From the NCBI GenBank assembly GCA_016873495.1, contig VGXC01000007.1, forward strand, positions 1 through 64,000: a stretch of DNA of 64,000 bases. Reading direction: 5' to 3'. The number at the start of each line of letters is the position of its first letter. Within the stretch, counting starts at the first letter, position 1. The notes below the pieces were generated by a model. It worked only from the letters and a program-made list of their open reading frames with translations, was not told the origin of the DNA and made no database searches. Below, piece after piece: positions 13,118 through 39,565 of this stretch. This DNA comes from Nitrospira sp. GTDB lineage: Bacteria; Nitrospirota; Nitrospiria; Nitrospirales; Nitrospiraceae. A program made the position numbers and the translations under genes.

Positions 13118-13990
13118 TTACAGACCGAGGGCGGCCTGGACCGTCGCGCCGATTTCGGCGGGATTCTTACAGACGCGCACCCCGGCTGCCTCGAGCGTCT
13201 TCATTTTTTCCGAGGCGGTGCCCTTGCCTCCGCTGATGATCGCCCCGGCATGGCCCATGCGGCGCCCCGGAGGCGCCGTGATGCCGGCGATGAAGCTGAC
13301 CACCGGCTTGCGCACGTGCTGCTTGATGAAGTCGGCGGCCTTTTCCTCCGCGTCGCCGCCGATTTCGCCGATCATCACGATGGCCTCGGTCTCCGGATCT
13401 TTCTCGAAGAGGGCCAGCACGTCCACAAAGTTCGTCCCGTTCACCGGATCGCCGCCGATCCCGACGCAGGTGGTCTCGCCCAATCCCAGGTTGGTGAGCT
13501 GGTTGACCGCTTCGTAGGTCAGGGTGCCGCTGCGGGACACCACGCCGACGCGGCCCTTCTTATGGATGAATCCCGGCATGATGCCGATCTTGCACTCGTC
13601 CGCGGTGATGACGCCCGGGCAGTTGGGCCCGATCAGCCTGGTGTCCCGGCCGCGCAGCGCCCGTTTGGCCCGCACCATGTCGTTCACCGGAATCCCCTCG
13701 GTGATGCAGATGATGAGCGTGATGCCCGCATCGGCGGCTTCGAGAATCGCGTCGGCGGCGAAGGGCGGGGGCACGAAGATCAAGGACGTATCGCACTCCG
13801 TCTTCTTCACCGCATCTCGGACCGTGTTGAACACCGGAATGCCTTCGACTTCCTGCCCGGCCTTGCCCGGCGTGACGCCCGCCACGACTTTGGTCCCGTA
13901 GGCTTTGCACTGGGTCGCGTGGAAGGAGCCTTCCTTGCCGGTGATCCCCTGCACCACCACCCGCGTATTCTTGTTGACGAGAATGCTCAT
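13118..13990 (-). CDS. sucD: Succinyl-CoA synthetase alpha subunit
   Basis: A 290-residue CoA-binding/ligase subunit. It has the Rossmann CoA-binding start ([17 protein letters not shown]), the ligase motif [14 protein letters not shown], and [17 protein letters not shown] with the phospho-accepting His. In the reductive direction it forms succinyl-CoA from succinate, CoA and ATP, feeding the 2-oxoglutarate synthase step. Only 1 bp separates it from sucC upstream; the two subunits form the enzyme. It is the last gene of the rTCA cluster. Confidence 0.97.
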
Positions 13991-13991
13991 G

Positions 13992-15203
13992 TCAGTGCCC
14001 CGCCTCCCCGGCAGCCGCCCGTTTCTTGCGCGCCTTGCCCGTCATCGCCACGATCTTTAGCGCCGCTTCCCAGAGGTCGTTGGCGACGTCCAGCTTCAGC
14101 CCCGACTCCTTGAGCAGCTTGCGGCCCTCCTCCGCGTTGGTCCCCTGCAAGCGGACGACCAGCGGCACGTCGATCTGCACTTCCTTCGCCGCTTCGATGA
14201 CGCCGTGGGCGATCCGCTCGCAGCGCACGATCCCGCCGAAGATGTTGATGAAGATGCCCTTGACGTTCTTGTCCTTGAGCAGGATCCGGAAGCCCGCCGC
14301 GACGGTCTCCTTGGTCGCGCCCCCGCCCACGTCCAGGAAGTTGGCCGGCTCGCTGCCCGCCAGCTTGATCACGTCCATCGTGGCCATGGCCAGACCGGCC
14401 CCGTTCACCATGCAGCCGATGTTCCCGTCCAGCTTCACGTAGTTCAGGTTGTTGGCCGTCGCCTCGATCTCCAGCGGCTCCTCTTCGTGCAGATCGCGCA
14501 TCGCCTGCACATCCGCATGCTTGAACAGGCCGTTGTCGTCGAAGGAAACCTTGCCGTCCAGCGCGATGAGCTTCTTGTCCGTCGTGATCACGAGCGGGTT
14601 GATCTCGACCATCGCGGCGTTCTTGTCCATGAACAGCCGGTAGAGGTTGCCGAGCATCTGCACGAAGGGGTTCAGGACCGCCGGCTCCATGCTGTTGAGG
14701 CCGATGCCAAACGCGATGTTCCGCCCGTTGTACCCTTGGAACCCGACCGCCGGATCGATCAGTTCCTTGATGATCTTCTCCGGCGTATGCGCGGCGACTT
14801 CCTCGATTTCCATCCCGCCTTCGGTGCTGGCGATGAAGACCGGCCAGCCGGAATCGCGATCCACGAGGAGGCTCAGATACAGTTCCTTGGCGATGCCCGC
14901 CCCTTCCTCGATCAGGAGCCGGCGCACCTTGCGGCCTTTCGGGCCGGTCTGGTGGGTCACCAGCTTCTTGCCGATCAGTTCCTGCGCCAGTCCCGGCACC
15001 TCCGCCTGATTCTTGGTGATCTTGACGCCGCCGGCCTTGCCGCGCCCGCCCGCGTGGATCTGGGCTTTGACGACGTAGACCGGACTGTTCAGCTGCGCCG
15101 CCCACTTGGCCGCCGCCTTGGGGTTCTTGATCTCTTTTCCCCTCGGCACGGGCACGCCGAACTGGGCGAACAGCGACTTGGCCTGGAATTCATGGATGTT
15201 CAT
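13992..15203 (-). CDS. sucC: Succinyl-CoA synthetase beta subunit
   Basis: A 403-residue ATP-grasp subunit starting [20 protein letters not shown], typical of SucC, with [15 protein letters not shown] (nucleotide binding), VEINPLVIT and the C-terminal flavodoxin-like domain ([44 protein letters not shown]). It provides the nucleotide and succinate site and pairs with sucD downstream. A palindromic repeat element separates it from frdA upstream, so read-through from frdA may be reduced. Confidence 0.97.
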
Positions 15204-15367: not shown

Positions 15368-16948
15368 CTAGTCTTTTTTGGCGTAGGCGGGAAAGAGCAT
15401 CGGCGAGACGACGGAGGCCGAGGCGCCGTGCTTGCGCGCCACCTCGCGGAACCGCTTGAGATGATCCAGCGTCAGCTTGCCCTGGGGTTCGGCCTTGGAT
15501 CGGGCGGCGGCGGTGAGACCGGACCGTTTCCCATAGACCATCAGGTCCAGCAGGGAATTGCCCATCAACCGATTGCGTCCGTGTAGACCGCCGGAGGCTT
15601 CGCCGGCGACGAACAGCCCCTTGACCCCGGACTCCCCCTGGGTATCGATCTGCACGCCGCCGTTTTGGTAGTGCAGGGTGGGATAAATCAGCACCGGGTC
15701 CTTCGAGATATCGACCCCGAACCGGTCGTATTGCATCACCATCGCCGGGAAATGCTTCTCGATCGTGCCCGGTCCCTGCTCGGCGTCGAGGAGCGGCGTA
15801 TCCAGCCAGACCCCCACGCGCCCGGCCATGGTCCGGATGCCCCGGCCCTCTTTGCATTCCCGGATGATGGACGAGGACACCACGTCGCGGGTGTCCAGCT
15901 CGTTGACGAACCGCTCGCCTTTCGCGTTGACGAGATGCCCGCCTTCGGAGCGGATGCCTTCCGTGACCAGCGCGCCGGCCAGCTGTTCCGGATAGACGGC
16001 GCCGGACGGATGATACTGGAACGTGTCGATGTGCATGAGCTTGGCGCCCATCCGATAGGCCATCGTGAGGCCGTCGCCGGTCGCCCCGTAGTGGTTGCTG
16101 GTGGGGAACCCCTGGATGTGCAGCCGGCCGATCCCGCCCGTGGCCAGAATCACGGTCTTCGCCGCCACGACGATGAAACGCTTGTTGTCGAGGTCCTGCA
16201 GCACGGCGCCGGTGCACCGGCCCTGCCCGTCGCTGAGGAGCTCGACCGCGGCGGAAAACTCCAGCATCCGGATCTTCCGGTTGAGGACCTCGTCCTTCAA
16301 CACCCGCATGATCTCCAGGCCGGTGTAATCCGAGCAGGTCAGGAGCCTCGGCTTGGAGGAGCCGCCGCCCTTCTTCACATGCAGGTTGCCGTCTGCGTCC
16401 CGGTCGAACAACACGCCGAGATCGAGCAGCCACTGGGCGACGGACGGCCCCTCCTCCACCATGACCTTGAGCAGGGCATGGTCGTTTTTCATGTGCCCGC
16501 CCTTGAGGGTGTCCAGGAAATGCGTCACCGGCGAATCCTCGGCGGCGACCGAAATCTGGATGCCCCCCTGGGCCATAACCGTATTGGAATCGCCCAGGCG
16601 GAGCTTGGTGGCGAAGAGCACCGAGGCGCCCTGCGCATGGGCGTGCAAGGCGGCGGCGCAGCCGGCCCCGCCCCCGCCCACCACGAGCACGTCGCAGGTG
16701 TGGGTGGGCGTCAGATCCAGGTCGGCCGGAACAGGACTGTCTCCTTCGAGCAGCGCGGCCAATTCACGGACGGTCTTTTCGCCCTCGTTCGGGCCGAACT
16801 TGATGGGGCGGTAGGCGTTCTCGCGAAAATCCGGGTGGTATTTCTTGATCAGCTCATCCCGCTCAGCCGTGGAGAGCTTGGGCATGGTCTGCTTCCGCCG
16901 GGCATCGCGGGTCTTGTGGACGATTTCTTGAAGTTTATGAATGTCCAT
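15368..16948 (-). CDS. frdA: Fumarate reductase/succinate dehydrogenase flavoprotein subunit, atypical
   Basis: A 526-residue flavoprotein. After an unusual ~80-residue N-terminal extension comes the FAD motif VLVVGGGGAG (about 87-96). Catalytic residues of the family are kept: TRDVVSSS (Arg), QYHPSG and PTLHYQNGG (His). The His that covalently binds FAD in membrane FRD/SDH (S-H-T-V motif) is Asn122 here (DSNTVMAQGG), so FAD should be non-covalent; in E. coli FRD, replacing this His abolishes succinate oxidation but leaves fumarate reduction. That fits an enzyme working in the reductive TCA direction. It is shorter than typical FrdA because the C-terminal domain is reduced. Confidence 0.85.
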   Translation of the reverse strand: MDIHKLQEIVHKTRDARRKQTMPKLSTAERDELIKKYHPDFRENAYRPIKFGPNEGEKTVRELAALLEGDSPVPADLDLTPTHTCDVLVVGGGGAGCAAALHAHAQGASVLFATKLRLGDSNTVMAQGGIQISVAAEDSPVTHFLDTLKGGHMKNDHALLKVMVEEGPSVAQWLLDLGVLFDRDADGNLHVKKGGGSSKPRLLTCSDYTGLEIMRVLKDEVLNRKIRMLEFSAAVELLSDGQGRCTGAVLQDLDNKRFIVVAAKTVILATGGIGRLHIQGFPTSNHYGATGDGLTMAYRMGAKLMHIDTFQYHPSGAVYPEQLAGALVTEGIRSEGGHLVNAKGERFVNELDTRDVVSSSIIRECKEGRGIRTMAGRVGVWLDTPLLDAEQGPGTIEKHFPAMVMQYDRFGVDISKDPVLIYPTLHYQNGGVQIDTQGESGVKGLFVAGEASGGLHGRNRLMGNSLLDLMVYGKRSGLTAAARSKAEPQGKLTLDHLKRFREVARKHGASASVVSPMLFPAYAKKD

Positions 16949-17040
16949 AAATCAGGCACGAGGCGAGTGGCTAGGGGCTAGAGGAGGAATATGGCCGGTC
17001 TTCGGTCCACTTGCCCCTTGCCTCTCGCCCCTCGCCATCT
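16949..17040. repeat. Degenerate-word palindromic spacer between frdB and frdA
   Basis: The spacer contains GAGGCGAGTGGCTAGGGGCTAGAGG near its left end and its approximate reverse complement (CCCCTTGCCTCTCGCCCCTCGCC) near its right end. It is one of several spacers in this window made of degenerate short words in inverted orientation. It could fold into a long imperfect hairpin in the frdBA message. Confidence 0.55.
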
Positions 17041-17754
17041 TCATTTCAATTCGGCGCAGGCCTTGGTCAGTTCCTGTTCGTTCATCGCGAGCACCCGGTT
17101 CCACTCGTCGGCAAACCGGCCGTCTTCGATTTCCTTGATCCGATGGGCCAGCCGCGAAGGCTTCTCGGTGAAATGGACGCCCTGGGCCCGGCTGGCATAG
17201 ACCGCCACCAGGCTGGGCGCGATGTCGGCGATGCAGACCGGCGCGCACATGCCGCACATCACACAGTCCATAAACATCTCCGACACGGCCTTGAAATCCC
17301 CGAACACCGCCCGCCAGACCCCTTCCCGCACGTCGATTTTCTGCGGGCAGGCTTCGGTGCAGGCGTTGCAGTTCCGGCAGAGCGGGGCTTCGGGATAGAG
17401 GTTGAACAAGTCCTGCTTGGGATCCGTGAGGACAGCCAGATCGTAGGTGGCCTTCCGCGCCGGGAACGGGGGCATCATCGAGAAGGACATCCCGTCGTGG
17501 ACGGATGTCTGGCAGGCCAGGCAGGTCTTCACCTTGGGATCGTCTTTGGTCCGGTAGTAGGTCGCGCAGGCGCCGCAGAACCCGCCCAGGCAGCCGACCC
17601 CGCGGATGACTTCCTGGCCCGTGTACCAGAGGGCTTTCAGCATGGTGATGCCCTCCGGTACCTGGTGCTTCTTGCCGGCGATCTCCACCGTCACCATCTT
17701 CGGGTGGAGCACCTCTTCCTGATCGACGACGTTGTCTTTGTCGATGTCGGCCAT
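17041..17754 (-). CDS. frdB: Fumarate reductase iron-sulfur subunit, atypical
   Basis: A 237-residue iron-sulfur protein. The [2Fe-2S] ligands are C55, C60, C63 and C78. A first ferredoxin-type motif C126-x2-C129-x2-C132-x3-C136-P follows. The second is C164-x2-C167-x2-C170-x3-C174, which has four Cys, where membrane-bound FRD/SDH has a C-x5-C pattern that holds [3Fe-4S]; a second [4Fe-4S] cluster is therefore likely. No membrane-anchor gene lies in the cluster, so the FrdAB complex may be soluble or use an unlinked partner. It lies upstream of frdA in the same direction. Confidence 0.87.
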   Translation of the reverse strand: MADIDKDNVVDQEEVLHPKMVTVEIAGKKHQVPEGITMLKALWYTGQEVIRGVGCLGGFCGACATYYRTKDDPKVKTCLACQTSVHDGMSFSMMPPFPARKATYDLAVLTDPKQDLFNLYPEAPLCRNCNACTEACPQKIDVREGVWRAVFGDFKAVSEMFMDCVMCGMCAPVCIADIAPSLVAVYASRAQGVHFTEKPSRLAHRIKEIEDGRFADEWNRVLAMNEQELTKACAELK

Positions 17755-17856: not shown

Positions 17857-22366
<4,510 letters not shown>

Positions 22367-22440
22367 AGCGTTCTCCCTCAAAGCGTTATCAGTTTTCAGT
22401 GATCAGTTTGAAGCGAGAACTGACAACTGTCACTGACAGC

Positions 22441-22521
22441 TATTTCAACGGCGGAACTTCCCGCGCCTATTTCAGCGGCGGGACCTCCCGCGACTACTTC
22501 AATGGCGGCACTTCCCGCCGT
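22441..22521. repeat. Three tandem 27-bp units at the aclA 3' end, each with a stop codon
   Basis: Units lie at 22441-22467, 22468-22494 and 22495-22521. On the minus strand each encodes REVPPLK followed by TAG, so the end of AclA is triplicated together with its stop codon. The first unit in reading order is the functional end of aclA; the other two lie in frame downstream. Substitutions between units are mostly synonymous (AAG/AAA, CCA/CCG), which suggests past selection on the peptide or simple divergence. Confidence 0.9.
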
Positions 22522-24320
22522 TTGGGTGCCGCATAGTTAACCAGGTAATCGAAGAGGCGGATCAGGCGGCTGTCCTGGCGCTTCTGGTCCACCCAATGGC
22601 CGATCAAGCCGATCGTCCGGGCCAGGATGAAGAACCCGTTCAAACTGTCCACCGGGAAGCCGATGTCCACCAACACGGCGGCCATGGTCCCGTCCACGTT
22701 CAGAATCAGGTTGTCCTTCTTCGCCGCGGTGACCTGCTCCACCTGCAACGCGAAGTCCAGACAGGGCGTCTTGATGTTCAGGCTCTTCACGTACCCGACC
22801 AGTTCCTTGACCCGCTTGTCCGGGTTGCGAAGGCTCTTGACCCGGTGGCCGATGCCGGGGACCGGCCCGACGTTCTTCTTCATGTAGGCCAGGAACTCGT
22901 CCACGGTCATTTTGTTGTCGACCGCGTACTTGAACCAGCGACCGGCGTCGGTCACGGCCCCGCCGAACCGGGGACCGATCATGATCATGCCGGCCGCCAC
23001 CGCCTGGGACAGGCCAATGCCGGCGCAGGCCGCCAGGATCGTGGCGTAGGCGCCGCTCACGCAGGGACCATGGTCGGCCGAGAGCATCAGAATGCGCTTG
23101 ACGATCTCCGCTTCCTGCTTGGAGATCAGCCGCTTGTCCCAGAGCAACCCGATGATGTGCGGAATCTCATAGCCCTTGTTGATGAGCTCGGAGGCGGGAT
23201 AGCCGTCGTAGCAGGGCTCGTCGCCCCGATCGTCGCTGATCGTGGTGCGGATCAGCGGCGCGACGGTGACTTCGTTGTCCCTCATCGCCTGTTCGACGGT
23301 CTTCGGCAGCTTCGGCACTTCCGAGGCCGGCACGTCAGGAATCGGGACGATCTGCCCGCTCTTCACAAACTCTTCGTAAGTCTCCTTGATGGCCGGCCCG
23401 AGTGCGCCGAAGGTGGGCGGGACGATGGCCCCGGCCTTCTTGAGCGCATCTGACTTGGACCGGGCCGAGCCCTCGCCCTTCATCCCTTCCTTGGCGCCGG
23501 CATGGCCGAACTTCATGCCCTTGGGGAGGCTCTCCTGGCAGAAGCCTGAAACCACGGCCAGCAGCTTGATCCGCCGCTTCTTGGCCCCGTACCACTCGGC
23601 CGCCCGCTCTTCCAAATCGCCGCCCATCTCGCCGACAATGACGACCGCCTTGGTCTTCGGGTCGTTCTCGAACATTTCCAGGTAGCTGACGTAGTCCGTG
23701 CCGGGATAAGCGTCGCCGCCGATGCCGATCGCCGTGGTGATCCCGTCCGCGAACTGGGAACAGATCCAGATGATCTCGTTGGAGAGGCCGCCGGACTTAG
23801 TGATGACGCCGAAGGAACCCTCCCGGTAGAGCTTGCAGGAGACCAGATTGTCAAACGCGCCGCCGATCACGCCCAACCGGCAGGAGCCGGCCGAAATGAT
23901 CCCGATGGAGGAGGGGCCGTTGAAAGTCTTGCCCAGCTTGGTGGCCTGACGGGCCAGCAGCTTGGCGTCCTTCTCCGGCACGCCCTCGGTGATCATGGAG
24001 ACCAGCTTGATGTGGGGATCGTTCAGCGCTTCCATCGTGCCGGCGCAGGCCCGATCCGCGCCGATGTAGACGAGGCTCGTGTTGATGCTCGGATGGTTCT
24101 TGGTCGCCTCGGCCACGGTCTTATATACGGGAATGGCCAGCAGGCCGCTGCCGTAGGGCACTTCGTTGGTCTTGCCCGCGTCGGGCGGATAGACGAAGGC
24201 CTCAACGTAGAGCGACTTCTTGTTGAGATAACAAAACTCGGCCATGCGACGCGCGGCATTCACCCCCGCGACTCCGCCCTGGATCACCACGCGTGTGTCC
24301 TTATTCGCCAGAATGCTCAT
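22494..24320 (-). CDS. aclA: ATP-citrate lyase large subunit (AclA)
   Basis: A 608-residue subunit with an N-terminal succinyl-CoA-synthetase-alpha-like part (VVIQGGVAGVNAARRMAEF, GVITKSGGLSNE, KFGHAGAKEG with the phospho-His near 273) and a C-terminal citrate-synthase-like domain (SADHGPCVSGAYATILAACAG, GIGHRVKSLRNPDKR). With AclB it cleaves citrate with ATP and CoA into acetyl-CoA and oxaloacetate, the defining step of the reductive TCA cycle. The stop lies in the first of three 27-bp tandem units. It follows aclB with a 93-bp spacer of ATGAATG-type words. Confidence 0.96.
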   Translation of the reverse strand: MSILANKDTRVVIQGGVAGVNAARRMAEFCYLNKKSLYVEAFVYPPDAGKTNEVPYGSGLLAIPVYKTVAEATKNHPSINTSLVYIGADRACAGTMEALNDPHIKLVSMITEGVPEKDAKLLARQATKLGKTFNGPSSIGIISAGSCRLGVIGGAFDNLVSCKLYREGSFGVITKSGGLSNEIIWICSQFADGITTAIGIGGDAYPGTDYVSYLEMFENDPKTKAVVIVGEMGGDLEERAAEWYGAKKRRIKLLAVVSGFCQESLPKGMKFGHAGAKEGMKGEGSARSKSDALKKAGAIVPPTFGALGPAIKETYEEFVKSGQIVPIPDVPASEVPKLPKTVEQAMRDNEVTVAPLIRTTISDDRGDEPCYDGYPASELINKGYEIPHIIGLLWDKRLISKQEAEIVKRILMLSADHGPCVSGAYATILAACAGIGLSQAVAAGMIMIGPRFGGAVTDAGRWFKYAVDNKMTVDEFLAYMKKNVGPVPGIGHRVKSLRNPDKRVKELVGYVKSLNIKTPCLDFALQVEQVTAAKKDNLILNVDGTMAAVLVDIGFPVDSLNGFFILARTIGLIGHWVDQKRQDSRLIRLFDYLVNYAAPKRREVPPLK

Positions 24321-24413: not shown

Positions 24414-25613
24414 TTATTTGTTCTGCAGCGCCATGTCGACAATGTCGGTCAGCGGCAGGTTTCGATCGAAGACGTTGATGTCGAAGCCCTCGTCCTTCAG
24501 CTTCCGCATGAGTTCTAGGCCTTCCTTCTCGTTGGGCCCCCCCCGGCGCACCCAGATCTTGACGCCCTTGAGCTTGCCCTCGCCCTTGGCCTTGCGGAAC
24601 CCGGCGATGATGCCGCCGAAGGTCTTCTTGACGTCGGTAAAGTTGGCGATCGCGCCGCCGACGATGATGTGCTTGATGTCGGGCAGGGACGCGACTTTCT
24701 CGGTGAGGACTTCCACGGCCCAATCGGGTGGATCGCCGGAATATTCGGCGTAGTTGGCAAGCTTACCGCCGCGGGCCACCACCGCATCCGAATAGTAGAC
24801 GCTGGCGCCACCCCCGGCCGGCAGCATGGCGATGTTGCCCCCGGGAATCTGGATGAACTTGACGGACCCCTTGATCTTGGAGTCCACCGCCATGACCTCG
24901 ACCTCGTCCTTGGTGTAGGCCCGGCCGAATTCCGCGGCGAACTGGAAGTTCCAGTCCGGATGGCGGAACTTGGCGTCCCCGTCGAGGAGCGTCACCGCAT
25001 CCAGCGCGATCAACTCCCCGTCGCTCTCGCGGACGACCACCGGGTTCACTTCCAGGTATTGCGCATCTTCATTGTCGAAGCAGGTAAAGAGTTTGTTGGC
25101 AAACTCGGCCATCTTCTTGGCCACCGGACCGGAAAATCCCGCCTCCTTGGCCAATTTGTCCAGATCAGCAGCGGCCGGCTTCTCACCGACCTCCACCGCC
25201 AGCTTCTTGACCCGGTCCCAATTGGATTCCACTTCGATCCCGCCGCAATTGGCCAGGAGAATCTCGCACCCGATCCTCGTGGACTTGACGGAGGCATAGT
25301 ATTCCTCTTTGTGCGGAATCATTTCCGACACGATAACCTGGGACACGGTGATGCTGCCCACTTGTTTTCCGAGCATCTCCTTGACCGCCGCCTCCGCCCC
25401 CTTCCGGTCCAAATCCACCTTGACCAGGCCGAGCTTGAAGCGGGAGCCGAGCGCCTCGTGGGCCTTGGCCACCAGCTTGCCCTTTTGTATCCAGTCGTTC
25501 ACCTTGGCGAGTTCATTGAACTGCTCGACCGAGGTCACGACCACATAATTGGGAACCGTGATGCCCCACTTCTTCATCAGGCCCATCCCGGGCCCTTCAA
25601 GCACCTTCGCCAT
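24414..25613 (-). CDS. aclB: ATP-citrate lyase small subunit (AclB)
   Basis: A 399-residue ATP-grasp subunit similar to succinyl-CoA synthetase beta. Recognisable parts are the start MAKVLEGPGMGLMKKWG, the ATP-grasp region (LVAKAHEALGSRFKLGLV), LEVNPVVV, IPGGNIAMLPAGGGASVYY and the C-terminal IIVGGAIANFTDVKKTFGG. It forms the enzyme with AclA and is the first gene of the rTCA cluster. A strong promoter candidate lies at 25810-25839, giving a leader of about 190 nt. Confidence 0.96.
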   Translation of the reverse strand: MAKVLEGPGMGLMKKWGITVPNYVVVTSVEQFNELAKVNDWIQKGKLVAKAHEALGSRFKLGLVKVDLDRKGAEAAVKEMLGKQVGSITVSQVIVSEMIPHKEEYYASVKSTRIGCEILLANCGGIEVESNWDRVKKLAVEVGEKPAAADLDKLAKEAGFSGPVAKKMAEFANKLFTCFDNEDAQYLEVNPVVVRESDGELIALDAVTLLDGDAKFRHPDWNFQFAAEFGRAYTKDEVEVMAVDSKIKGSVKFIQIPGGNIAMLPAGGGASVYYSDAVVARGGKLANYAEYSGDPPDWAVEVLTEKVASLPDIKHIIVGGAIANFTDVKKTFGGIIAGFRKAKGEGKLKGVKIWVRRGGPNEKEGLELMRKLKDEGFDINVFDRNLPLTDIVDMALQNK

Positions 25614-34919: not shown

Positions 34920-36266
34920 TCAGATATTCTGCATGAAGTGGGACACGGCACCCTGATCCACGTCCGTGCCCATGATGGCCGACAGCGCCACGTTGGTGGA
35001 CTTCTTGCCGGTCAACCCGGACTCGACTTCGTCCACGATCAACTCCACCGGCATGGACTGGCCGCCGTAGACGTGCGGTCCAGCAATGATCTTGGCCTTG
35101 GAGTGGCCGTAGATGGCCGTCGCCACTTCCCGGGCCAGCCATCCCACGTAGTTGAACTCGGGGATCACGATCAGCTTGGTGTTCTTGCACAACTGCCGCA
35201 GTTCTTCCGTCGGGAACGGACGCAGGGACCGGACCTTGATGAGGCCGACCTTGATGCCCTTGTCGGCACAGAGCCGCACCGCTTCGCGGGACTGAGCCGC
35301 CGCGCTGCCCGCGGCGATGATCACGGCGTCGGCGTTCTCCATGTTCTCGGCGGAACACAATCCGCCCATGAACTTATTGATGTACTTGCGAGACCGCTCC
35401 ACCGCGGCCCAAACTTCCTGCTGCCAGACCGCGTGGATGTTGTAGGCCATGAAGTTGGACTTCTGCACGGGCGCGTCGCGGGACAGCCGGGCCGGCGGGT
35501 TCTCCGCGTCCAGCACCGGTACCGCGCCCCGCCACGCCTCCCTGGGCGGCAGCTTAATGCCCTTTTCCTGCATGTGCACATAGCCGCGCGCGTGGGTCAC
35601 GAAGAAGCCGTCGCAGCAGACGCCGACCGGCAGGGTCACGTCGTTCATTTCGCTGATGATGAACCCCTTCATGATGAAGTCGAACATGTCCTGCTGGTTT
35701 TCGGCGTGAAAGACGATCATCCCGCAGTTCAGCAGGTAGGACACTTCGATGTTGTCCGGCTGGATGGCCAGCGGGGCGTTGACCACGCGGCAGGTGAACA
35801 TGCAGACGGCCGGCAGTCGGTGACCAGGCCAGGAGGCGATCGGTTCGATCCCCCGCAGCGTTCCGGGGCCGGCGGTCGCCGTGAAGCACCGCACGCCCGC
35901 ACGGGAGGCGCCGGCGATCGCGGACATCACGCCGTATTCCTCTTCGCCCCGGTAATACTCCTTCACGTACCCTTCGCCATAGAGCACGCCGATGAGCTGC
36001 ATGGTTTCGCTCTGGGGCGTGATCGGATAGGCGATCGACAGGTCCACATTGGCGCGCCGCACCGCTTCCTTGGCCGCTTCGCTCCCCGTGATGAATTCCT
36101 TGGTCCGCGGCGCCTCGAAGAACATGTATTCGGGCGTGACTACGCGCTGCTTCTTGGCCTCCGCGTGCGGGTCCTTCTTGACCTCGGCCTTCGGAGCCGC
36201 CGCGACGCTGGTGATCGGGTCGCCCTGCGGATTGGTTTTGACTTCGGTGTCCAGGGATTCGCTCAT
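34920..36266 (-). CDS. porA: 2-oxoacid:ferredoxin oxidoreductase alpha subunit
   Basis: A 448-residue subunit with the pyrimidine-binding-type domain of PorA/KorA (DLSIAYPITPQSETMQLIGV, YGVMSAIAGASRAGVRCFTATAGPG) and the C-terminal domain (DAVIIAAGSAAAQSREAVRL, IKVGLIKVRSLRPFP). The ~60-residue N-terminal extension rich in Lys and Pro is unusual. It catalyses ferredoxin-linked reductive carboxylation of acetyl-CoA or succinyl-CoA. The motifs do not tell pyruvate from 2-oxoglutarate specificity. It is the last of five genes in its operon. Confidence 0.92.
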   Translation of the reverse strand: MSESLDTEVKTNPQGDPITSVAAAPKAEVKKDPHAEAKKQRVVTPEYMFFEAPRTKEFITGSEAAKEAVRRANVDLSIAYPITPQSETMQLIGVLYGEGYVKEYYRGEEEYGVMSAIAGASRAGVRCFTATAGPGTLRGIEPIASWPGHRLPAVCMFTCRVVNAPLAIQPDNIEVSYLLNCGMIVFHAENQQDMFDFIMKGFIISEMNDVTLPVGVCCDGFFVTHARGYVHMQEKGIKLPPREAWRGAVPVLDAENPPARLSRDAPVQKSNFMAYNIHAVWQQEVWAAVERSRKYINKFMGGLCSAENMENADAVIIAAGSAAAQSREAVRLCADKGIKVGLIKVRSLRPFPTEELRQLCKNTKLIVIPEFNYVGWLAREVATAIYGHSKAKIIAGPHVYGGQSMPVELIVDEVESGLTGKKSTNVALSAIMGTDVDQGAVSHFMQNI

Positions 36267-36304
36267 CGTTGCACCTCTCTGTGTATCGGTGAGGTCTTGC
36301 GACC

Positions 36305-37069
36305 TTACCCTTCGCGCTTCATCTGTTCCGGACTATGACCAAAGGCTGCAGCGCCGGCCGTCCCGCCCGGCGTGGGCATGAACACCAGCGGATTCGTGTG
36401 GGTCTTGCCCCCGTGCACCTTCGATTGGGTGCCGGTGAAGCGGACGTTTTCCCCGTTCGCCGGCAACTTGAGGCCCATGCTCTCGCGCACCCGCTTGAAA
36501 ATCTGGGCGACCTTCTTGAGCTTGGCCGTGTCCGAATCACGGACCGTGAGCATCGCGTCTTCGTGGCCCTGCTCCGCGCAAATGGCGCTGGTGCAGCAAT
36601 TGGTGCCGGCCCGAATCATCTTCAGCGTCAGGTTGGCATAGTGGCAATGGACGCCGATGAAGATGCAGGCTTCGATCTTGTTGCCCCAGATCGTCAGGTT
36701 CGGATGGTTCGGGTTAATCACCTCTTCCGGATCGATCTTCGGATACTTGGGCCGGTAGTCCGGCATTGGGATGATCAGCACGTCCGGGATCTGGGCCGCA
36801 ATCTCCAGCACCGCCTTAGCCTTCTCCACCGCGTGCTCGTTCCAGGCCCAGAGCACCATCGGGCCGGGAAAGAGCGTGGCGTTCGGGCTCGTCAACATCT
36901 TCCGCGCCATCTCCTCGATCACCAGGTCTTCGTTGGGCTCCAGCAACCCATACATGAGCCCCTCCCCGGGATCGGGCAACATCACGCCCAACTGCGCTGC
37001 TGAGGGAGGATGGAACCCGGCAGGGCCGGGCACGATGATCCGTTCTGGCTTCTGTTCCGTCGTCTTCAC
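36305..37069 (-). CDS. porE: 2-oxoacid:ferredoxin oxidoreductase accessory (epsilon-type) subunit
   Basis: The 254-residue product (GTG start at 37069, preceded by AAGGGAG) has the signature of the extra subunit found in five-subunit 2-oxoacid oxidoreductases of rTCA bacteria such as Hydrogenobacter: LVIEEMARKMLTSPNATLFP, YPKIDPEEVINPNHPNLTIW and GVHCHYANLTLKMIRAGTNC. Its role is not established; it contains Cys and His (HCHYA, CCTSAICAEQGHE) that might bind metal. Position between the ferredoxin-like and alpha subunits supports membership. Confidence 0.8.
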   Translation of the reverse strand: MKTTEQKPERIIVPGPAGFHPPSAAQLGVMLPDPGEGLMYGLLEPNEDLVIEEMARKMLTSPNATLFPGPMVLWAWNEHAVEKAKAVLEIAAQIPDVLIIPMPDYRPKYPKIDPEEVINPNHPNLTIWGNKIEACIFIGVHCHYANLTLKMIRAGTNCCTSAICAEQGHEDAMLTVRDSDTAKLKKVAQIFKRVRESMGLKLPANGENVRFTGTQSKVHGGKTHTNPLVFMPTPGGTAGAAAFGHSPEQMKREG

Positions 37070-37088
37070 GCGTTCTGTCTCCCTTAAA

Positions 37089-37412
37089 CTAGCCGACGGC
37101 CGGACCGGCCAGCACGGCGGTGGTGCTCTTCTCGCCGTATACGATGTTGTCGGTGATCGCCGCATTCGGCAGCTGGTCGATCATGATCATCTTGATCGCG
37201 TTATGTTTGGCCATGTTGTCGCAGACCCATACGCACTGGGCGCAGCCCTTGCACCGGTCCACCGCCACGTAGGCCGCGCCATACTTATAGCCTTTGTCTC
37301 TCCCGGCCTGGTCGTTGTAGAGGATTGTGTTCGCCTCGGGACAGAACTGGGTGCAGAGCTTACAGCTCGTCTGGGCACAAATGTCAACGTTGATATCGGC
37401 CACAAGATACAT
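37089..37412 (-). CDS. porD: 2-oxoacid:ferredoxin oxidoreductase delta subunit (ferredoxin-like)
   Basis: A 107-residue protein with two cluster-binding regions: C12AQTSC17KLC20TQFC24P, where the first spacing is unusually long, and CKGCAQCVWVC, a regular C-x2-C-x2-C-x3-C motif. It relays electrons between the catalytic core and ferredoxin. It lies 19 bp upstream of the epsilon gene and 24 bp downstream of gamma. Confidence 0.9.
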   Translation of the reverse strand: MYLVADINVDICAQTSCKLCTQFCPEANTILYNDQAGRDKGYKYGAAYVAVDRCKGCAQCVWVCDNMAKHNAIKMIMIDQLPNAAITDNIVYGEKSTTAVLAGPAVG

Positions 37413-37436
37413 GGAGGTTCCTCTTTTCTATAGCGG

Positions 37437-38156
37437 TCAGACTCGCGCCGCAGCAGTCGCTTCCGCCTTCTTGGCGGCCTTGCTGATTTCGTCCCAGCCG
37501 TGCTCGGCCGCAAAGTCCCAGCCGGCCTTGATCACCGCCACGTTCTTATCGATCAGCTCCTGCTTCTTCTTAAACTTCCGCTCGACCACGCTGTCCAGGG
37601 CCGCAGTGCCGCCCGACACGACAAACCCCTTGCCGAGGAACCGGTCCTTCACCGCCTGCTCCAAGGCGGCGATGGTGGTCAGACCGGTGATACAGCCGAT
37701 CGCGCCCATCAGCGCCATATTGGTCGCCAGGTCCATCCCGGCCACTTCCAACGAGAGCTTCGTTGCGGGCAGGTAGTAGAGCTTCGCGCGGCGCTCCTCC
37801 AATTCGCGGGCCTGATCCTTGTGCAGCTTCATCGGCCCGTCGTTGTTGATCAACGCGACTCCGTCCTCTTTCAGCCCGAAGTAGAAGGGCATCGTGTAGG
37901 ACTTGCCGTGCGTGATGACCTGCGGGTGGAAAATGATGATGATGTGCGGGAACGTGATTTCCCCGATCTCGTAGATCGGTTCGTCGGACACCCGTACGTA
38001 GCTCTCCACCGGCGCCATCCGCTTTTCGGATCCGTAGAACGGGACGATCGTGCTTTCCCCGCCCGCGTTGATGACCGCCGTGCTCAGGATGTGCGAGCCG
38101 GTAACGACCCCCTGTCCCCCGACGCCGGCCATCCGAATGTTGAAGCGTTTCGCCAT
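37437..38156 (-). CDS. porG: 2-oxoacid:ferredoxin oxidoreductase gamma subunit
   Basis: A 239-residue gamma subunit starting IRMAGVGGQGVVTGSHIL, the classic glycine-rich entry of the PorG/KorC fold, with YGSEKRMAPVESYVRVS and PATKLSLEVAGMDLATNMALMGA. The Lys/Ala-rich tail (AAKKAEATAAARV) is likely a flexible end. It is separated from porB by a 106-bp spacer that carries a hairpin repeat. Confidence 0.93.
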   Translation of the reverse strand: MAKRFNIRMAGVGGQGVVTGSHILSTAVINAGGESTIVPFYGSEKRMAPVESYVRVSDEPIYEIGEITFPHIIIIFHPQVITHGKSYTMPFYFGLKEDGVALINNDGPMKLHKDQARELEERRAKLYYLPATKLSLEVAGMDLATNMALMGAIGCITGLTTIAALEQAVKDRFLGKGFVVSGGTAALDSVVERKFKKKQELIDKNVAVIKAGWDFAAEHGWDEISKAAKKAEATAAARV

Positions 38157-38165
38157 CGCATCCTC

Positions 38166-38220
38166 CCTACCGAGCTTACTAAGCCGACCCCTTCGATCAA
38201 ATGGGGTCGGAGAGGTTTCT
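38166..38220. repeat. Hairpin repeat, copy 1 (second copy at 62482)
   Basis: TACCGAGCTTACTAAGCCG is followed by CCGACCCC (38184-38191), an 11-nt loop TTCGATCAAAT, and GGGGTCGG (38203-38210), then AGAGGTTTCT. The same layout recurs at 62482-62536 with a different stem sequence but the same loop. It lies between porB and porG and may tune expression or act as a weak terminator. A further AGCTTGCT fragment is seen near 38241. Confidence 0.75.
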
Positions 38221-38262
38221 CACTCCACTTTTCACGTTCCCGAGCTTGCTACACCGGCCCGC

Positions 38263-39153
38263 TTACGCCTTGGTCACCGCCGGAGCCGGCTTCGGCAGGA
38301 ACTCCTTGTACCCATAGCGTTCGGCGAGGAATTGCTTGGCTTCATCGGTCACGTACTCGGTGAACTGGTAGCGATCGCCTTCGACGTTCTTGGCGTCTTC
38401 CATGACTTTGTCCGTAGGGATCGCGTACTCGATGTTGCAGGAGGTATAGGCCTGGATGTAGGTGGGACCGATCTCGCGGGCGATCAGCACCGCCTTCTTG
38501 ATCACCGCTTCGACCCGCCGCGGGTTGTTCGGCACGACGGTGGCGACGTAGGCGCAACCGGCGCTCTTGGCCATGGCGAGCATGTCCATCTTCTCGAACT
38601 TCTTGCCGAGCGGCGCCATCTTGAGCACCGCGCCCTTGTTGGTCATGCCGCTTTCCTGGCCGCCGGTGTTGCCGTAGACCTCGTTGTCCAGCATGATCGT
38701 CGTGAACTTCTCTTTCCGGAACCAGGAGTGGAGCGTGCAGGAGAAGCCGATGTCGGCCATGCCGCCGTCGCCGGCCATCACGACCACATCCTTGGGCTTG
38801 TCGCCAAAGCGCAGCCGAAGCCCGCGCGAGAGCCCGCTCGCCACGCCATTCTGGTCACCGTAGTTGCCGTAGACGAAGGGAATGGCGGCCTGCGAGATCG
38901 CCAGGCGGCCGCATCCGGCCGTGCCGACCGTGATCGTGTCTTCCGGATTCGGGAAGGAGATCATGGCCAGACGGATAAAAAGCGTCATAGCGCAGCCGGC
39001 ACACATTGGATGCTCCTCCAGAATCTCCTTGAAGCTCCCCATCTGCGATACGGTCGTCTTCTTCCCGAAGGGACCGTGTTCAACCATATCCTTGTATTCC
39101 TTGGGCATGAATTTGTCGAAGCCCGGCGAGAACTTCACATAATCGAGACTCAT
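38263..39153 (-). CDS. porB: 2-oxoacid:ferredoxin oxidoreductase beta subunit (TPP-binding)
   Basis: A 296-residue TPP subunit. HPMCAGCAMTLFIRL carries conserved Cys ligands and GTAGCGRL another. The TPP motif GDGGMADIGFSCTLHSWFR ... LDNEVYGNTGGQ is complete. I start at the ATG at 39153 (MSLDYVKFSPG), preceded by GGGAGGTG. It is the first gene of the operon, in order beta-gamma-delta-epsilon-alpha, with the promoter candidate at 39332-39361. Confidence 0.93.
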   Translation of the reverse strand: MSLDYVKFSPGFDKFMPKEYKDMVEHGPFGKKTTVSQMGSFKEILEEHPMCAGCAMTLFIRLAMISFPNPEDTITVGTAGCGRLAISQAAIPFVYGNYGDQNGVASGLSRGLRLRFGDKPKDVVVMAGDGGMADIGFSCTLHSWFRKEKFTTIMLDNEVYGNTGGQESGMTNKGAVLKMAPLGKKFEKMDMLAMAKSAGCAYVATVVPNNPRRVEAVIKKAVLIAREIGPTYIQAYTSCNIEYAIPTDKVMEDAKNVEGDRYQFTEYVTDEAKQFLAERYGYKEFLPKPAPAVTKA

Positions 39154-39565
39154 GTGGACACCTCCCAATCTATACTGACCGCCAGACTTCTGCCGGCCGG
39201 CCACCAGTCTTGTGTAATCAACCCTCTGAACCGATCGTTCACCTAACGGCACCCACGATGCGTGATCCACGGTGGGCCTGTCCGTGGAAATGACCTAAAA
39301 CCTCGTCTTCCCACAGACTTGGACGTGGCCGAGTCTAGCAAAGCACCCCGAAGATTGTCAATCGGTAAAGTCCCTCCTTGGAGGGCTAGCCGCAAGCGTA
39401 GCCGGACCGTATAACATCTCGGATATTCATGCAACTTGGCAGAAGACCCACCCAGGGCGAAAGAAGGCCTAGTGGCCCCTTTTTACGCTAGGCCATTTGG
39501 GCTAAACCAGCGGTGCAGAAACCGTAATAAATTCGTAAAAACCAGGTAAAATCACCCACATTGGC
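39154..39565. other. Divergent regulatory region between the por operon and tldD
   Basis: No gene. It contains the por promoter (39332-39361), a ~170-nt por leader with CACC/GGTG-type partial pairing, and an inverted repeat GGCCTAG (39466-39472) / CTAGGCC (39488-39494) midway between the two divergent promoters, a plausible operator or hairpin. Confidence 0.55.
39332..39361 (-). promoter_or_regulatory. Sigma-70-type promoter of the por operon
   Basis: On the minus strand TTGACA (39356-39361) and TAGACT (39332-39337) are separated by 18 bp. The predicted start near 39325 gives a leader of about 170 nt before porB. Confidence 0.65.

What the first reader, a model, noticed from the sequence alone, without database searches (positions are those of the whole stretch)
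15368..17754. Non-canonical fumarate reductase: Asn in place of the flavin-linking His, extra Cys in FrdB, no anchor gene
FrdA has Asn122 where membrane FRD/SDH enzymes have the covalent FAD His, plus an ~80-residue N-terminal extension. FrdB has C164-x2-C167-x2-C170-x3-C174, suiting [4Fe-4S] in place of [3Fe-4S]. No cytochrome b or anchor gene is near. Covalent FAD is needed for succinate oxidation but less so for fumarate reduction, so this may be a soluble, one-way fumarate reductase tuned to the reductive cycle.
Basis: partly seen in the sequence, partly recalled or inferred. Interest (0 to 1): 0.7.

Follow-up and report, generated by a model that had tools for sequence, protein, structure and literature searches.

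The report
Soluble fumarate reductase in carbon-fixation operon
A nitrifier-like bacterium carries, inside its gene set for fixing CO2 by the reverse Krebs cycle, an unusual two-part fumarate reductase with no membrane anchor and no built-in attachment for its flavin; it belongs to a widespread, little-studied enzyme family that probably works mainly in one direction.

Summary
FrdA (15368-16948, -) has Asn122 at the flavin-His position and a ~82-residue N-terminal extension. FrdB (17041-17754, -) has C164-x2-C167-x2-C170-x3-C174, and no anchor gene is near. The pair lies between isocitrate dehydrogenase and succinyl-CoA synthetase in a reverse-Krebs (rTCA) operon.

New here: FrdA also lacks the C-terminal domain (PF02910) of SdhA/FrdA, and FrdB falls far below the SdhB/FrdB model (18.9 bits, cut-off 88). 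The pair belongs to a large family in many bacterial phyla and some archaea. Asn, the catalytic residues and FrdB's 12 Fe-S cysteines are essentially invariant. Elsewhere the family often sits beside Hdr/MvhD genes (55 of 80 loci); the Nitrospirota rTCA clade lacks them. The same genome has a His-bearing SdhA and a type-E-like SdhB, so the extra Cys is not distinctive.

Best reading: a cytosolic FrdAB with non-covalent FAD, mainly reducing fumarate for the rTCA cycle from a soluble donor. Donor and one-way behaviour are unproven. Prior art is substantial: anchor-less frdAB in Leptospirillum (2008), non-covalent FAD without succinate oxidation in Wolinella MFR (2009), tfrAB with flx-hdr in tubeworm symbionts (2019). 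New variant of a known kind.

The parts
15368..16948 (-). FrdA flavoprotein, 526 aa (P0001), FAD_binding_2 at residues 86-466, no PF02910 C-terminal domain
16703..16948 (-). FrdA N-terminal extension (residues 1-82), motif HPD..GPN.G
   Evidence: invariant R14, R17, H38, P39, D40, G52 in 47 aligned rows; block pLDDT 87-95
16583..16585 (-). codon of Asn122, position of the FAD-linking His
17041..17754 (-). FrdB iron-sulfur protein, 237 aa (P0002)
17512..17592 (-). FrdB C55-C60-C63-C81, predicted [2Fe-2S] site
   Evidence: 89 of 90 FrdB
17347..17379 (-). FrdB C126-x2-C-x2-C-x3-C136, first [4Fe-4S] motif
   Evidence: 90 of 90 FrdB
17233..17265 (-). FrdB C164-x2-C167-x2-C170-x3-C174, second predicted [4Fe-4S] motif
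   Evidence: 90 of 90 FrdB
13992..15203 (-). SucC, succinyl-CoA synthetase beta, downstream of FrdA
   Evidence: conserved order
13118..13990 (-). SucD, succinyl-CoA synthetase alpha
17857..20085 (-). monomeric isocitrate dehydrogenase, upstream of FrdB
   Evidence: PF03971, 1343 bits
20120..22381 (-). aconitase
   Evidence: PF00330/PF00694
22494..24320 (-). ATP-citrate lyase large subunit (AclA)
   Evidence: phylum search
24414..25613 (-). ATP-citrate lyase small subunit (AclB)
   Evidence: PF16114 citrate-binding

Best explanation
FrdBA is a cytosolic two-subunit fumarate reductase of the reverse Krebs cycle. Shown by sequence: FrdA has the complete fumarate/succinate active site but neither the flavin-linking His nor the C-terminal domain, and FrdB can ligate one [2Fe-2S] and two [4Fe-4S] clusters. 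Inferred: FAD is bound tightly but non-covalently, so its potential is lowered and the enzyme mainly reduces fumarate; electrons enter FrdB from a soluble low-potential carrier (ferredoxin, shared with the 2-oxoacid:ferredoxin oxidoreductase encoded about 9 kb from the cluster, or NAD(P)H through a separate diaphorase) rather than from quinol through an anchor. Succinate oxidation is left to the separate His-bearing, type-E-like SdhAB(E). The family elsewhere is often coupled to Hdr/Mvh/Flx modules; the Nitrospirota rTCA clade mostly works without them.
For: Operon and phylogenetic link: rTCA order AclBA-Acn-(IDH)-FrdBA-SucCD repeats across Nitrospirota; FrdB in 184 of 196 genomes of the order; in 295 phylum genomes FrdA-family and AclA occur together in 114, FrdA alone in 26 (20 of them one family whose two examined clusters carry citryl-CoA synthetase/lyase-like genes), AclA alone in 10, neither in 145. 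Active site: H313, E330, R333, R354, H426, R460 in 101 of 101 and T329 in 100 of 101. No His. No PF02910. FrdB 12 Cys, 18.9 bits to dhsB against cut-off 88. No PF01127 anchor; no clear membrane helix: highest 19-residue hydropathy means 1.63 (FrdA) and 1.80 (FrdB, inside the Fe-S motif), against 1.66 for the genome's SdhA and 2.68 for the membrane ORF of L074. Canonical SdhA 760 bits against cut-off 567; SdhB over cut-off in 90 of 117 genomes of the order. Nearest solved folds include soluble flavocytochrome c3 fumarate reductases (Z 40.9, rmsd 2.0, 387 aligned) and E. coli FrdA (Z 38.6, rmsd 3.6, 429 aligned). Precedent for non-covalent, reduction-only: Wolinella MFR (PMC2680327). FlpD/MvhD in 0 of 117 genomes of the order.
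Against: No biochemistry exists for this family in anything I read. The donor is not encoded in the operon. Energetically, a nitrite oxidiser would pay less by reducing fumarate with quinol than with ferredoxin or NAD(P)H. Seven phylum genomes of one family (f20) have AclA but no FrdA-family gene, so the rTCA cycle does not need this enzyme. The Leptospirillum-like clusters carry a membrane ORF near FrdB, which could be an anchor there. In N. moscoviensis a 'complex II' gene cluster was transcribed below the median (PMC6606698); I could not tell whether that cluster is this one. The FrdB model is weak (pTM 0.62), so cluster assignment rests on Cys patterns.
Confidence: 0.66

Rival explanations
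1. FrdAB is a quinol-linked enzyme whose anchor is encoded elsewhere: it docks on the HdrB/SdhE-like protein (G000:C25) or on an unknown membrane protein, so it is a type-E-like complex II with divergent A and B subunits.
For: A CCG protein scoring 224 bits to the MFR SdhE anchor model (cut-off 500) exists in the genome; Leptospirillum authors called their frdAB a type E enzyme and proposed orf1 as anchor (PMC2607301); L073 and L074 carry such an ORF. Quinol would be the cheapest donor.
Against: The CCG gene lies about 5 kb from the canonical SdhB, not near FrdAB; orf1 was not found in window or genome; FrdB is far below the dhsB cut-off; PF01127 is absent.
Confidence: 0.17
2. FrdAB is reversible or oxidises succinate in vivo (for example with a bifurcating partner in the Hdr-linked relatives), and Asn does not impose direction.
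For: Relatives occur beside fumarase, succinyl-CoA synthetase and CaiB-like CoA-transferase genes in lineages outside the reductive cycle clusters, where succinate may be oxidised; MFR A86H shows that flavin linkage alone does not set direction (PMC2680327).
Against: The complex-II enzymes without the covalent bond in the passages read lost or lack succinate oxidation (PMC2680327); the Nitrospirota clade sits with reductive-cycle genes and the genome keeps a separate His-bearing SdhA.
Confidence: 0.1
3. The flavoprotein acts on another substrate (L-aspartate, another enoate) rather than fumarate.
For: NadB is the second-best NCBIfam model (313.5 bits against cut-off 452.75).
Against: A true NadB over its cut-off (545.5 bits) is present elsewhere in the genome; the gene lies between IDH and SucCD; the dicarboxylate-binding residues are all kept.
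Confidence: 0.04

Closest known systems
Leptospirillum ferriphilum frdAB in the ccl rTCA operon (PMC2607301)
   Same: Two genes, FrdA+FrdB, between citrate-cleavage/aconitase genes and sucCD, no known anchor found; loci L073/L074 match that gene content and belong to the family (50-53% identity to the window FrdA).
   Different: The authors filed it under type E and wrote of covalently linked FAD; a neighbouring membrane orf1 is present there and was not found here.
tfrAB with flxABCD-hdrABC in rTCA clusters of tubeworm symbionts and Thioflavicoccus mobilis (PMC6315080, PMC11636981)
   Same: Anchor-less fumarate reductase pair in an rTCA cluster; the family described here includes clusters with Flx/Hdr genes.
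   Different: The Nitrospirota rTCA clade lacks HdrABC/MvhD. I did not compare the symbiont proteins themselves.
Methylmenaquinol:fumarate reductase SdhABE of Wolinella (PMC2680327)
   Same: No His (Ala86), non-covalent FAD, fumarate reduction without detectable succinate oxidation.
   Different: Membrane-bound, exported, has the SdhE anchor; the window FrdA scores 226 bits against the model's cut-off 1100.
Thiol:fumarate reductase TfrAB of methanogens
   Same: TfrA is the best NCBIfam model for FrdA (363.5 bits); soluble, anchor-less (recalled).
   Different: About half the cut-off of 718; the match ends at model position 407 of 546; TfrB's CCG part is missing from FrdB (29.7 bits against 385).
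Soluble flavocytochrome c3 fumarate reductase (Shewanella)
   Same: Highest structural Z of the FrdA model, 40.9; non-covalent FAD (PMC2680327).
   Different: Uses haems in place of an Fe-S subunit; periplasmic.

Membership tests
Membrane complex II (SQR/QFR, types A-D) | His that links FAD covalently | tested here: not met
   Asn122
Membrane complex II (SQR/QFR, types A-D) | C-terminal domain PF02910 in the flavoprotein | tested here: not met
   absent in window FrdA and in L105, L072, L074; present in own SdhA at 142 bits
Membrane complex II (SQR/QFR, types A-D) | SdhB/FrdB model TIGR00384 over cut-off | tested here: not met
   18.9 bits, cut-off 88
Membrane complex II (SQR/QFR, types A-D) | Cytochrome b or other membrane anchor gene | tested here: inconclusive
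   PF01127 0 in genome; other anchor families not searched
Type E SQR/QFR (SdhABEF) | CCG-type SdhE encoded with the enzyme | tested here: not met
   only CCG genes are on C18 and C25, not near FrdAB
Type E SQR/QFR (SdhABEF) | C-x2-C-x2-C-x3-C second motif in the Fe-S subunit | tested here: met
   shared with own SdhB
Thiol:fumarate reductase TfrAB | TfrA model NF004900 over cut-off | tested here: not met
   363.5 against 718 bits
Thiol:fumarate reductase TfrAB | TfrB with fused CCG domain | tested here: not met
   29.7 against 385 bits; no CCG domain
Methylmenaquinol:fumarate reductase (MFR) | model NF042982 over cut-off | tested here: not met
   226.3 against 1100 bits
Fumarate reductase by function (succinate/fumarate active site) | substrate His, Thr/Ser-Glu and Arg residues | tested here: met
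   H313, E330, R333, R354, H426, R460 in 101 of 101, T329 in 100 of 101; residue roles recalled from SdhA/FrdA/Fcc3 work
Fumarate reductase by function (succinate/fumarate active site) | fumarate reduction measured | not testable with these tools
   needs purified enzyme
Five-subunit NADH-dependent fumarate reductase of Hydrogenobacter (FrdABCDE) | FrdCDE partners and sequence kinship | not tested
   no Aquificota sequence was at hand; Aquifex FrdA-E seen only in a table passage of PMC10052474
L-aspartate oxidase NadB | TIGR00551 over cut-off | tested here: not met
   313.5 against 452.75 bits

The most novel reading that the evidence does not exclude
The family is a distinct class of fumarate reductase (short FrdA with an HPD..GPN.G extension, non-covalent FAD, 12-Cys FrdB) that in most lineages is a plug-in for Hdr/Mvh/Flx electron-bifurcating or confurcating complexes. 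The Nitrospirota rTCA branch is an Hdr-free version that takes electrons straight from reduced ferredoxin (or NAD(P)H via FlxAB-like proteins, as seen next to the genes in L070), making fumarate reduction an irreversible, low-potential-driven step of CO2 fixation in nitrifiers.
Probability: 0.28. Interest if true: 0.75.

Novelty: new variant of a known kind. Interest (0 to 1): 0.5.

Why it matters
Fumarate reduction is one of the steps that sets the direction and energy cost of the reverse Krebs cycle. In nitrite oxidisers it has been written as a quinone-linked complex II reaction (for Nitrospina, PMC3578206). If the operon enzyme is instead a soluble, non-covalent-FAD FrdAB with its own donor, the energy budget of CO2 fixation in these organisms changes and the two complex-II-like enzymes divide the labour. 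The wider family, spread over many phyla and often next to Hdr/Mvh/Flx genes, has no close solved structure (top Foldseek chain 36% identical) and falls below the cut-off of TfrA, NadB and SdhA models, so annotations of fumarate reductase in many genomes may be unreliable.

Tried and rejected
Idea that the extension is a mis-called start: rejected, conserved motif and ordered model. Idea that the extra Cys marks a soluble enzyme: rejected, own canonical SdhB has the same pattern. Idea that an Hdr/MvhD complex feeds FrdAB in this organism: not supported, PF02662 in 0 of 117 genomes of the order, CCG matches in only two open frames of the genome. Idea that FlxA feeds it: only 33% and 28% partial matches in the genome; the first (read in L161) looks like a general flavin/NAD reductase away from rTCA genes; the second (L162) was not read. 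Anchor guess orf1 of Leptospirillum: no homologue (the genome search had no positive control). FrdB fold search: 24 chains at E <= 0.001, TM about 0.25, of no use; no complex II Fe-S chain among the 50 rows shown. Mapping of N. moscoviensis transcripts to this gene: not possible, locus tags could not be matched. Counts on Hdr neighbours: the HdrB cluster of my script also holds SdhE-like genes that follow a canonical SdhAB in L078, L079, L081 and L082, so the Hdr numbers are upper bounds; many loci are cut short by contig ends. The tree used 92 of 103 sequences: the one under 500 residues and ten rows that I chose to leave out as mostly near-copies were dropped; quick method, SH-aLRT only, long outgroup branches, so the root is unsure.
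Full report
What is there. The window is 64 kb of contig C7 of a 3.19 Mb, 89-contig genome. On the minus strand stands a run of reverse-Krebs genes: AclB 24414-25613, AclA 22494-24320, aconitase 20120-22381, monomeric isocitrate dehydrogenase 17857-20085, FrdB 17041-17754, FrdA 15368-16948, SucC 13992-15203, SucD 13118-13990. A 2-oxoacid:ferredoxin oxidoreductase lies upstream, 34920-39270. No call named the organism; that the host is Nitrospira-like is my inference from this gene set.

The observation. FrdA is 526 aa with Asn122 in the motif where the genome's own canonical SdhA has the linking His. About 82 residues precede the FAD domain. FrdB has the two C-x2-C-x2-C-x3-C motifs. Two things were missed. 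First, FrdA has no Succ_DH_flav_C domain (PF02910), which the genome's SdhA has at 142 bits. Second, FrdB scores only 18.9 bits to the SdhB/FrdB model with cut-off 88.

A second complex II. The genome has a SdhA with the His (G000:C40, L009:4193-5857, 760 bits to TIGR01812, cut-off 567), a SdhB at C25:39171-39848 (240.9 bits), and about 5 kb away a CCG protein of SdhE/HdrB type. This looks like a type-E-like SQR scattered over two contigs. In the order, SdhB passes its cut-off in 90 of 117 genomes; 22 more have weaker matches and 5 none. So a His-bearing SQR and the Asn-bearing FrdAB coexist, which is what a division of labour would look like.

Distribution. FrdB is found in 184 of 196 genomes of the order. 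In 295 genomes of the phylum a FrdA-family gene (48-100% identity; the family is well separated from paralogues, whose best E-values lie near 1e-60 to 1e-74) was found in 140 by my reading, and AclA in 124. Both in 114, FrdA alone in 26, AclA alone in 10, neither in 145. Of the 26, 20 belong to one family (f21) whose two examined clusters carry citryl-CoA synthetase- and lyase-like genes instead of AclA (L073, L074), the arrangement reported for Leptospirillum ferriphilum (PMC2607301, passages read). Of the 10, 3 are in the order (G006, G111, G117; in G006 and G117 FrdB lies at or near a contig end, so the missing FrdA may be an assembly gap) and 7 are in family f20, which has AclA but not this FrdA. 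The link with the reductive cycle is strong but not absolute.

The wider family. The 80 come from many bacterial phyla and four archaeal records. One of the two search patterns contains the Asn, so Asn in all 101 sequences is partly circular; the 20 Nitrospirota sequences picked from a whole-protein search are not, and all have it. H313, E330, R333, R354, H426 and R460 are invariant in 101 and T329 in 100. FrdB keeps C55/60/63/81 in 89 of 90 and the eight others in 90 of 90. In the 80 loci, 55 have at least one HdrA/HdrB/HdrC/MvhD-type gene nearby, 20 have HdrA, B and C all together, 11 have Flx-type genes, 13 have Mvh hydrogenase genes, 29 have Suc or 2-oxoacid oxidoreductase genes, 15 have fumarase genes, and 20 show no Hdr, Flx or Mvh gene in the stretch held. 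The HdrB label includes SdhE-like genes in a few loci, so these are upper bounds. Pfam supports the labels MvhD (FlpD), FlxA-like (NAD-binding, DHODB Fe-S), HdrA- and HdrC-like Fer4 proteins and Ni-hydrogenase.

Tree. In a quick ML tree of 92 sequences the Nitrospirota rTCA sequences (16 rows, plus L073/L074 at the base) lie outside a branch of 72 rows supported at 98 that holds all rows that I had labelled as Hdr-linked, including L072, the second copy of a Nitrospirota genome. L072 sits with FlxA, FlxB-like, MvhD, HdrA, HdrB and HdrC genes. Among the 18 rTCA-clade loci tblastn finds no HdrABC or MvhD; one, L070, has FlxA- and FlxB-like genes after FrdBB'A-SucCD, with a weak match to the c7 (FlpD-fusion C-terminal) protein. 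The order as a whole has no FlpD/MvhD (0 of 117). Five of the Nitrospirota clusters carry two FrdB genes in tandem (L063, L064, L065, L069, L070).

Structure. The FrdA model is good (pLDDT 88.1, pTM 0.90) and the extension is ordered. VIA-align puts flavocytochrome c3 fumarate reductases first (Z 40.9, rmsd 2.0, 387 aligned) and E. coli FrdA close behind (Z 38.6, rmsd 3.6, 429 aligned); residues before 64 are not covered by the rows shown. The FrdB model is moderate (pLDDT 82.9, pTM 0.62) and its fold search uninformative.

How it most likely works. Fumarate binds in the conserved pocket against an FAD held without a covalent bond. Three clusters in FrdB bring electrons. Lack of the His is expected to lower the flavin potential (recalled); in E. 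coli QFR and yeast SQR variants and in Wolinella MFR, lack of the covalent bond goes with loss or absence of succinate oxidation, while in MFR adding His restored the bond but not the activity (PMC2680327, passages read). I therefore expect, but have not shown, a bias to fumarate reduction. The donor is the main unknown: ferredoxin or NAD(P)H are my first choices because no anchor, no Hdr and no close FlxA were found. Quinol through an unknown partner remains possible and would be cheaper for the cell.

Relation to print. Anchor-less frdAB in an rTCA operon was described in Leptospirillum in 2008, filed under type E, with FAD described as covalently linked (PMC2607301, passages). tfrAB in rTCA clusters with flxABCD-hdrABC were described for tubeworm symbionts and Thioflavicoccus (PMC6315080, PMC11636981; passages). 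The N. moscoviensis transcriptome reports a complex II cluster below median and a lone flavoprotein gene, NITMOv2_0695, much higher (PMC6606698, section 16 read); I cannot say which of these, if either, is this gene. Nitrospina has type B and type E SQRs (PMC3578206, passages). My searches and the passages read showed no description of the missing His, the missing C-terminal domain or the 12-Cys FrdB in Nitrospira; most subscription papers are not held, so this is weak evidence of absence.

Verdict. The finding is real and correctly read in its main points. It is not a lone oddity: it is one member of a large, apparently uncharacterised class of anchor-less fumarate reductases, here in its reverse-Krebs setting. 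New variant of a known kind; interest 0.5.

Noticed in passing
L072:4916-11500 and loci L077-L156: FrdBA of this family lies beside HdrC-HdrB, HdrABC-MvhD, FlxAB or Mvh hydrogenase genes in many phyla and some archaea, suggesting a widespread Hdr-coupled fumarate reductase.
   Followed up: partly
L063, L064, L065, L069, L070: Two tandem, clearly different FrdB paralogues precede FrdA in these Nitrospirota clusters; the window has only one.
   Followed up: no
L076:7986-12769: FrdAB followed by fumarase beta and alpha genes and a protein with a 4Fe-4S part and apparent membrane segments: a possible quinone-linked version of the family.
   Followed up: no
window 36305-37165 (-): A CO_dh-family (PF02552, CODH/ACS epsilon-like) protein is encoded between the alpha gene (34920-36266) and the ferredoxin-type, gamma-size and beta genes (37089-39270) of the 2-oxoacid:ferredoxin oxidoreductase cluster.
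   Followed up: no
phylum family f20 (G211, G219, G227, G233, G239, G247, G255): Genomes with ATP-citrate lyase but without this FrdA family; which enzyme reduces fumarate there is open.
   Followed up: no
G000:C40 and G000:C25: The canonical SdhA gene is separated from SdhB and the SdhE/HdrB-like gene, which lie on another contig.
   Followed up: partly
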